The position numbers and the translations under genes are program-made. Below, one piece after another: positions 35,949 through 36,673 of a stretch of DNA of 39,966 nt. Under the pieces are notes generated by a model. That model saw only the letters and a program-made list of their open reading frames with translations, was not told the origin of the DNA and made no database searches. Origin of the DNA: an uncultured Pelagibacteraceae bacterium (lineage in GTDB: Bacteria; Pseudomonadota; Alphaproteobacteria; Pelagibacterales; Pelagibacteraceae); assembly GCA_902624495.1 (NCBI GenBank), contig CACNYH010000004.1, forward strand, positions 1 to 39,966, read 5' to 3'. Numbering within the stretch: position 1 is the first letter of the stretch; each line of letters starts with the position of its first letter.

Positions 35949-36569
35949 AAATTAAATATATTTATTTTCGGTCCAGATAGTTTTATTTCTACATTTAACG
36001 AGCTTGAACCATATTTTAAGTTTAACATTTCCACAAATCAAAAAAAATTAACCTCCTCTTTTGGAAGTAATTTACATGGTATTATTTACCATAAGGATAT
36101 ATCTCACGATGATAGAATAAAAGATATACTAAAAAAATATAAATGTTTGAAAATATTAGCGACTGATACTGTTTCTAAATTATCAAATGATTATGATTAT
36201 GTTCTTAAATTACCTACAACTATTGAAGAAGTAAATAACATTATAGAAGGAAGTGCTGCAAAAAATGAATTTGCTAAAAATTCTTCTATATCTATTAAAG
36301 ATTACATATTAGATAAAAATGAAAAAAAATTAATAAAAAATAATAAAGCTATAATATTAACAGAAAAAGAAATTCAGCTCTTAGAGGTTTTGTTGAAGAG
36401 ACAAAAAGCAGTTTCAAAGGATGATATATTGACTCTTGTATGGCAATATTCTGCAGAGTCAGATACTCATACTGTTGAAACACATATATATCGATTGAGA
36501 AAAAAAATTAGTGAAAAATTTCTTGATGAAAAGTTTATACTAAATAATAAGGAAGGCTATTATCTTTGA
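35943..36569 (+). CDS. OmpR-type winged-helix regulator with degenerate receiver-like N-terminus
   Basis: C-terminal LTEKEIQLLEVLLKRQKAVSKDDILTLVWQY...DTHTVETHIYRLRKKI...EGYYL; N-terminal part lacks clear phosphoacceptor Asp. Confidence 0.88.
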   Translation: MHKLNIFIFGPDSFISTFNELEPYFKFNISTNQKKLTSSFGSNLHGIIYHKDISHDDRIKDILKKYKCLKILATDTVSKLSNDYDYVLKLPTTIEEVNNIIEGSAAKNEFAKNSSISIKDYILDKNEKKLIKNNKAIILTEKEIQLLEVLLKRQKAVSKDDILTLVWQYSAESDTHTVETHIYRLRKKISEKFLDEKFILNNKEGYYL

Positions 36570-36673
36570 AAAAGAGAAATAAATATGCGATTGATTTATT
36601 TACAAAAAAATATCGTAAAAGAGTAATCAAACCTAAAAAAGGAAAAGGGAGCTTTAAAAGAAGAAAAAAATAA
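36566..36673 (+). CDS. arfA: Minimal ArfA-like alternative ribosome-rescue factor (35 aa, TTG start; absent from ORF track)
   Basis: Translation MKKRNKYAIDLFTKKYRKRVIKPKKGKGSFKRRKK*; matches the ArfA core FRxRVxKxKKGKGSYxR; TTG overlaps the upstream TGA (TTGA). Confidence 0.8.
   Translation: MKKRNKYAIDLFTKKYRKRVIKPKKGKGSFKRRKK

What the first reader, a model, noticed from the sequence alone, without database searches (positions are those of the whole stretch)
36566..36673. Unannotated 35-aa ArfA-like ribosome-rescue factor, translationally coupled to a wHTH regulator
Between the winged-helix gene and pfkB, the + strand encodes TTG-started MKKRNKYAIDLFTKKYRKRVIKPKKGKGSFKRRKK*. The C-terminal half matches the conserved ArfA core (E. 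coli ArfA ...LFRQRVEKNKKGKGSYMRK...), the part that occupies the mRNA entry channel of stalled ribosomes. The ORF stops straight after the KKGKGSFxR core, lacking the hydrophobic tail that in E. coli is removed through tmRNA/RNase III control. It would therefore be an already-minimal form needing no truncation. The TTG start overlaps the upstream TGA (TTGA), suggesting translational re-initiation. It is too short for standard gene callers.
Basis: partly seen in the sequence, partly recalled or inferred. Interest (0 to 1): 0.82.

Follow-up and report, generated by a model that had tools for sequence, protein, structure and literature searches.

The report
Tailless ArfA ribosome-rescue gene in SAR11
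A 35-residue gene hidden after a regulator gene in SAR11, the commonest ocean bacteria, is a real, conserved relative of ArfA, the E. coli protein that frees ribosomes stuck on broken messages, although a large survey had reported no ArfA in this class of bacteria.

Summary
Window 36566-36673 (+) is a TTG-started 35-aa ORF whose start overlaps the TGA stop of an OmpR-type winged-helix gene, with AAGGAAGG 9 nt upstream. Pfam ArfA matches it alone at 23.5 bits (cut-off 25.5). The same ORF occurs in 150 of 169 same-genus genomes, 108 over the cut-off. Its place between the winged-helix gene and pfkB, an NTGA overlap (114 of 115) and purifying selection (pN/pS 0.12-0.17) are conserved. A profile made only from SAR11 copies finds ArfA and nothing else in the PDB (E 2e-7).

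SAR11 keeps tmRNA/SmpB, RF1 and RF2 but shows no ArfB-length protein in 24 genomes, so ArfA is its only recognisable backup. No hydrophobic tail and no excess of mRNA hairpins was found.

Main caveat: the mRNA-channel half is conserved, but the E. coli N-terminal minidomain that opens RF2 (first 9 residues, A18, L19, L24) is missing or changed. RF2-dependent release is inferred, not shown. A 2024 survey reported arfA in 0 of 2,376 Alphaproteobacteria; here it is common in SAR11, patchy in 13 other alphaproteobacterial families, and present in many marine viral contigs. Some metagenome pipelines already name it.

The parts
36566..36673 (+). arfA-like ORF, 35 aa, TTG start, TAA stop
   Evidence: sole PF03889 match in the genome
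36629..36661 (+). codons of the ArfA mRNA-channel core KPKKGKGSFKR (residues 22-32; E. coli residues 31-41)
   Evidence: almost invariant in 102 distinct SAR11 sequences with synonymous third-position change, partly by selection of loci; aligned to PDB ArfA chains
36566..36569 (+). TTGA start/stop overlap with the upstream gene
   Evidence: NTGA in 114 of 115 genus loci (TTGA 41, ATGA 40, GTGA 31, CTGA 2); upstream frame open >=60 codons in 111 of 114
36549..36556 (+). Shine-Dalgarno-like AAGGAAGG inside the last codons of the wHTH gene, 9 nt before the start
   Evidence: duplex energy -7.0; mean over 115 loci -4.1 against -0.4 background; part may come from the wHTH GYxL codons
35943..36569 (+). 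OmpR/PhoB-type winged-helix regulator, 208 aa, no recognisable receiver domain; upstream partner gene
   Evidence: PF00486 E 2.9e-16; PDB response-regulator effector domains
36675..37604 (-). pfkB-family carbohydrate kinase, convergent neighbour ending 1 nt from arfA

Best explanation
The ORF is a chromosomal SAR11 arfA encoding a minimal, tailless ArfA. Shown: it is a conserved protein-coding gene under purifying selection, homologous to ArfA over E. coli residues 12-43, with a start codon that overlaps the stop of the upstream regulator. Inferred: the basic C-terminal half (KPKKGKGSF.R) enters the empty mRNA channel of a ribosome stalled at the end of a broken message. Its middle part (Tyr16, then residues 18-21) adds a strand to RF2, and RF2 then opens and cuts the peptidyl-tRNA. 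It acts as backup to tmRNA-SmpB in cells that lack ArfB. Because the gene ends after the core, the product would need no truncation by RNase III and would not be held down by tmRNA tagging. Its supply would instead follow translation of the wHTH gene.
For: PF03889 3.7e-5, and all 44 members of A1 match PF03889 and no other Pfam family. The SAR11-only profile against 177,635 PDB sequences finds only ArfA, E 2.4e-7 to 6.1e-7. Prevalence. Synteny. Selection. NTGA overlap and SD. No ArfB-length frame in 24 SAR11-order genomes, 23 of which show exactly two long release factors, while the same search finds ArfB-length frames in other Alphaproteobacteria. SmpB in 24 of 25 genomes and alpha-tmRNA in 25 of 25. 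SAR11 RF2 keeps the VHRLV, RRHTSF and DIGWG segments that hold E. coli Val198, Phe217 and Trp319 (residue roles from PMC5378476). No excess of hairpins in the coding region, mean z -0.35.
Against: E. coli residues 1-9 have no counterpart. A18, L19 and L24, which order the N-terminus and contact RF2 Trp319 (PMC5378476), are I or K, D and K here. The window's own copy scores just under the Pfam cut-off. Some near-complete SAR11 genomes (g4) lack the gene, so it is dispensable in nature. No expression, ribosome-profiling or release data were available.
Confidence: 0.85

Rival explanations
1. It is an ArfA homologue that plugs the mRNA channel but uses a different way of engaging the release factor. 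It may act on RF1 as well, or bind RF2 without the E. coli minidomain, as Bacillus BrfA and Francisella ArfT do with unlike N-termini.
For: The channel half is invariant while the E. coli RF2-opening residues are changed and a new invariant set (N5, L11, K15) appears. BrfA shows that an unlike N-terminus can still activate RF2 (PMC8012679).
Against: Tyr16 sits at the place of F25, and the RF2 contact segments are kept in SAR11 RF2. There is no direct evidence for RF1 use.
Confidence: 0.3
2. It is a small basic ribosome- or RNA-binding protein derived from ArfA that no longer rescues ribosomes, for example a hibernation or channel-protecting factor.
For: The N-terminal activating part of E. coli ArfA is not conserved. 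The gene is absent from some near-complete genomes with a clean wHTH-pfkB junction.
Against: The channel core is the most conserved part, with strong purifying selection and a syntenic position. SAR11 has no other recognisable backup factor.
Confidence: 0.1
3. A chance lysine-rich ORF in an AT-rich genome that happens to resemble ArfA.
For: The peptide is short and K-rich, and the single-sequence score is just below the Pfam cut-off.
Against: Conserved in 150 of 169 genus genomes with fixed synteny, pN/pS about 0.13, codon variation at G, A and P codons, and a kept NTGA start.
Confidence: 0.01

Closest known systems
ArfA (YhdL) of Escherichia coli and other beta/gammaproteobacteria, PF03889
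   Same: Core ..Y/F-R-x-R-V-x-K-x-KKGKGS-F/Y-x-R, gapless alignment over E. coli 12-43; RF2 and tmRNA-SmpB present in the same lineage.
   Different: 35-48 aa in the SAR11 copies aligned, against 72 in E. coli; no hydrophobic tail and no excess of hairpins; first nine residues absent and A18/L19/L24 replaced; translationally coupled to a wHTH gene; in an alphaproteobacterial order.
ArfA of pelagiphage HTVC027P (gp30) and related viral copies
   Same: Same core; the 80 best virus-collection copies are 53-72% identical to the window's peptide. HTVC027P gp30 was annotated with PF03889 (PMC12753301).
   Different: Viral copies have varied N-termini and mostly ATG starts in different gene contexts; the chromosomal gene has a fixed locus. 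The gp30 sequence itself was not compared here.
BrfA of Bacillus subtilis and ArfT of Francisella (RF-dependent rescue factors)
   Same: Same kind of job: recruit a release factor to a nonstop ribosome; BrfA also puts its C-terminus in the mRNA channel (PMC8012679; ArfT from PMC6299226 title).
   Different: The SAR11 peptide carries the ArfA KKGKGS core. No test of homology to BrfA or ArfT was made here.
PF23876 (DUF7230), unknown function
   Same: A GKGS-less SAR11 g5 peptide reaches the DUF7230 cut-off (27.0); the profile of the GKGS-less set aligns with the SAR11 ArfA profile at 96.6%.
   Different: Lacks the GKGS residues that sit in the mRNA channel; function unknown.

Membership tests
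ArfA (PF03889) | Pfam profile match over the gathering score | tested here: inconclusive
   Window copy 23.5 against 25.5 bits; 108 of 169 same-genus genomes have a copy over the cut-off; all 44 aligned members match at E<=1.
ArfA (PF03889) | Basic mRNA-channel core KKGKGS-[FY]-x-R | tested here: met
ArfA (PF03889) | RF2-opening N-terminal minidomain (residues 1-25; A18, L19, L24, F25) | tested here: not met
   By alignment, residues 1-9 are absent, A18/L19/L24 replaced, F25 kept as Tyr16 (roles from PMC5378476). This defines E. coli ArfA rather than the Pfam family.
ArfA (PF03889) | Nonstop expression: hairpin or terminator in the 3' coding region and an unstable hydrophobic tail | tested here: not met
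   Tail 3-11 mostly basic residues in 123 loci; no hairpin excess in 101 distinct regions. A regulatory trait, not needed for activity in E. coli (PMC8012679).
ArfA (PF03889) | Co-occurrence with RF2 carrying the ArfA contacts Val198, Phe217, Trp319 | tested here: met
   in relatives; RF2 was not seen in the window's own 73% complete genome, which shows only RF1. Val198 is Ile in many g4 genomes.
ArfA (PF03889) | RF2-dependent peptide release on nonstop ribosomes; synthetic lethality with ssrA | not testable with these tools
   Needs bench work.
ArfB (PF00472 short form) | GGQ domain in a protein of about 140 aa | tested here: not met
   The ORF has no GGQ domain. SAR11 genomes show only long release factors.
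DUF7230 (PF23876) | Pfam profile match | tested here: not met
   The window peptide has no DUF7230 match at E<=10.

The most novel reading that the evidence does not exclude
ArfA-type rescue is an overlooked and widespread branch in Alphaproteobacteria. SAR11 has replaced ArfB by a minimal, unregulated ArfA whose RF2-opening part differs from E. coli. GKGS-less proteins in its sister lineages and other Alphaproteobacteria (including DUF7230) are a second, shortened arm of the same family. Pelagiphages carry their own copies to keep host ribosomes running.
Probability: 0.4. Interest if true: 0.75.

Novelty: new variant of a known kind. Interest (0 to 1): 0.62.

Why it matters
A survey of 15,259 genomes reported arfA in 0 of 2,376 Alphaproteobacteria (PMC11633108), and an earlier review confines it to a subset of beta- and gammaproteobacteria (PMC3989591). 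Here one of the most abundant bacterial groups on Earth carries it, without ArfB. That changes the map of ribosome rescue and gives a naturally truncated ArfA. It makes two ideas directly testable: that the E. coli tail exists only for tmRNA control, and that the N-terminal minidomain is needed to open RF2. Viral copies suggest that phages of the same hosts gain from it.

Tried and rejected
Chance ORF: rejected by conservation. RNase III or terminator hairpin as in E. coli: looked for, not found. ArfB in SAR11: none in 24 genomes. Assembly gaps as the reason for missing arfA: true for G127, whose pfkB runs off the contig end. Not true for 16 of the 17 g4 genomes whose pfkB locus was inspected (L308-L312, L314-L324), where the wHTH gene lies directly against pfkB with no arfA between; L313 sits at a contig end. 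An ArfA-ArfB trade-off across other Alphaproteobacteria: 6 of 21 genomes with ArfA-like proteins and 8 of 18 without have ArfB-length frames, not clearly different. ArfA in the regions read of cultured pelagiphages HTVC010P, HTVC008M and Mosig: no match to the core motif. tblastn of the peptide against phages gave one weak match (E 5, Roseobacter phage CRP-13), possibly because of BLAST's low-complexity filter. PHROGs gave only weak matches to families of unknown function for the window peptide. Structure prediction of a 35-residue peptide was not run, as it would not be informative without the ribosome. NCBIfam gave no match for the peptide.

Full report
What is there. The + strand at 36566-36673 reads TTG AAA AAG AGA AAT ... 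TAA, giving MKKRNKYAIDLFTKKYRKRVIKPKKGKGSFKRRKK. The TTG shares two bases with the TGA stop of a 208-aa OmpR-type winged-helix gene at 35943-36569 (the four bases TTGA; PF00486, E 2.9e-16; PDB response-regulator effector domains). A convergent pfkB gene ends 1 nt beyond the stop. AAGGAAGG lies at 36549-36556, 9 nt before the start.

Is it more than chance? Pfam ArfA (PF03889) scores the peptide at 23.5 bits, E 3.7e-5, just below the curated 25.5. phmmer against the PDB lists only ArfA chains, E 0.035-0.074. It is the only PF03889 match in the window's genome. In the same genus 150 of 169 genomes match and 108 exceed the cut-off; two of the 150 match only at E 0.075 and 0.69. In the family 198 of 247 match, 84 of 101 among the better genomes. 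With a profile of 44 SAR11 copies (A1), 116 of 149 near-complete genomes of the order match, mostly with E from 1e-12 to 1e-21; nine distant members match only weakly, E 5e-5 to 5e-3. The 80 best were all SAR11 records (Pelagibacteraceae, Pelagibacterales or Candidatus Pelagibacter), including Candidatus Pelagibacter ubique HIMB058, so SAR11 is confirmed.

Coding constraint. All 31 first loci have wHTH-ORF-pfkB. In a larger set the ORF was found beside pfkB in 132 loci, with the wHTH gene in 131; 11 further loci with a pfkB match gave no ORF to this scan, which looked only within 400 nt of the pfkB end. pN/pS is 0.13 over 30 codons and 0.12-0.17 over the 22 codons upstream of the core used for fetching. 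Residues such as Ala8, not required by the selection pattern, are invariant with several codons in use. The start overlaps the upstream stop as NTGA in 114 of 115 loci, with N = T, A, G or C, and the upstream frame is open for at least 60 codons in 111 of 114. Pairing with the anti-Shine-Dalgarno is -4.1 on average against -0.4 for background. Part of that signal may come from the wHTH GYxL codons. This is good evidence for translational coupling, though not a measurement.

Is it ArfA? A profile built only from SAR11 copies searches 177,635 PDB sequences and returns ArfA entries and nothing else, E 2.4e-7 to 6.1e-7, aligned to E. coli residues 12-43 in the best chain's numbering. All 44 members match PF03889 and no other Pfam family. 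The channel core KKGKGS-F/Y-x-R is kept. Tyr16 stands for F25. E. coli residues 1-9, A18, L19 and L24, which form the minidomain that opens RF2 (PMC5378476; A18T also in PMC8012679), are absent or replaced by I/K, D and K. SAR11 RF2 keeps the segments that hold Val198, Phe217 and Trp319; Val198 is Ile in many genomes. Homology is therefore firm, while the RF2 step is inferred.

No tail, no sign of the usual control. In 123 loci only 3-11 mostly basic residues follow R32. Coding regions show no hairpin excess (mean z -0.35, 8 of 101 below -2). E. coli ArfA is made from a nonstop message and its hydrophobic C-terminus is dispensable (PMC8012679; PMC3989591). The SAR11 form corresponds to that active part. 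That it escapes tmRNA control is inference.

Rescue inventory. Twenty-three of 24 SAR11-order genomes show exactly two class-I release factors, with open frames of 340-370 aa where listed, and one (G127) shows one; none shows an ArfB-length frame. The same search finds frames of 142-193 aa in other Alphaproteobacteria. SmpB is present in 24 of 25 and alpha-tmRNA in 25 of 25, tmRNA being known in P. ubique (PMC2704228). The window's own genome is 73% complete and shows only RF1.

Losses and relatives. In 16 g4 genomes without arfA whose junction could be read (L308-L312, L314-L324), the wHTH gene runs straight into pfkB. Genus g9 carries arfA about 1.5-3.5 kb from pfkB. Genus g5, the sister family f2 and one g4 genome have related proteins without GKGS. 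In a class-wide draw of 395 genomes 18 match A1, three of them SAR11, and 21 of 247 match the broader A3, three of them SAR11; the rest fall in 13 or so other families. Some have KGKGSY with long tails (L117, L121). The GKGS-less set aligns with A1 at 96.6% probability, and one member reaches the DUF7230 cut-off. Viral contigs hold at least 181 relatives, and three of four tested resemble pelagiphages.

Against the literature. Callan et al. 2024 report arfA in 0 of 2,376 Alphaproteobacteria with a DNA profile (PMC11633108). The only SAR11-related mention found is phage HTVC027P gp30 (PMC12753301). No paper found in the held library describes a chromosomal SAR11 ArfA, though most subscription papers are not held. 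JGI pipelines have named some copies.

Noticed in passing
L207-L286 (viral contigs), e.g. L244, L210, L229: At least 181 viral contigs encode ArfA-like proteins with the PKKGKGS[FY] core. L244 and L210 resemble Pelagibacter phages Mosig and HTVC008M, L229 resembles HTVC010P; those isolates lack the core motif in the regions read.
   Followed up: partly
L072-L079, L113, L115, L118, L119, L302 and others (alignment A4): Small basic proteins NPxAKxLRxPKYRxRVVKxKKxYxRK without GKGS occur in SAR11 sister lineages and other Alphaproteobacteria. One reaches the DUF7230 cut-off, and the set aligns with SAR11 ArfA.
   Followed up: partly
L117, L121: Two alphaproteobacterial ArfA-like ORFs end in KGKGSY[KR]RRSKHPQG plus a longer tail, reminiscent of the regulated E. 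coli layout.
   Followed up: no
L308-L312, L314-L324: g4 SAR11 genomes without arfA have the wHTH gene directly abutting pfkB: a clean empty site.
   Followed up: yes
SAR11 loci L001-L071 and L127-L206; window 36670-36680: arfA and pfkB are convergent with gaps from +139 to -39 nt, so in about 30 loci the 3' ends overlap. Termination inside the overlap could make nonstop arfA mRNA; not tested.
   Followed up: no
L334:1302-1511 and L335:3293-3496: Pelagiphages Mosig and HTVC008M both annotate a 30S ribosomal protein S21 gene, another phage-borne translation part.
   Followed up: no
window:35943-36569: The upstream OmpR-type regulator has a clear DNA-binding domain but no recognisable receiver domain, and evolves fast (mostly 36-54% identity to relatives within the genus) next to the nearly invariant arfA core.
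   Followed up: partly
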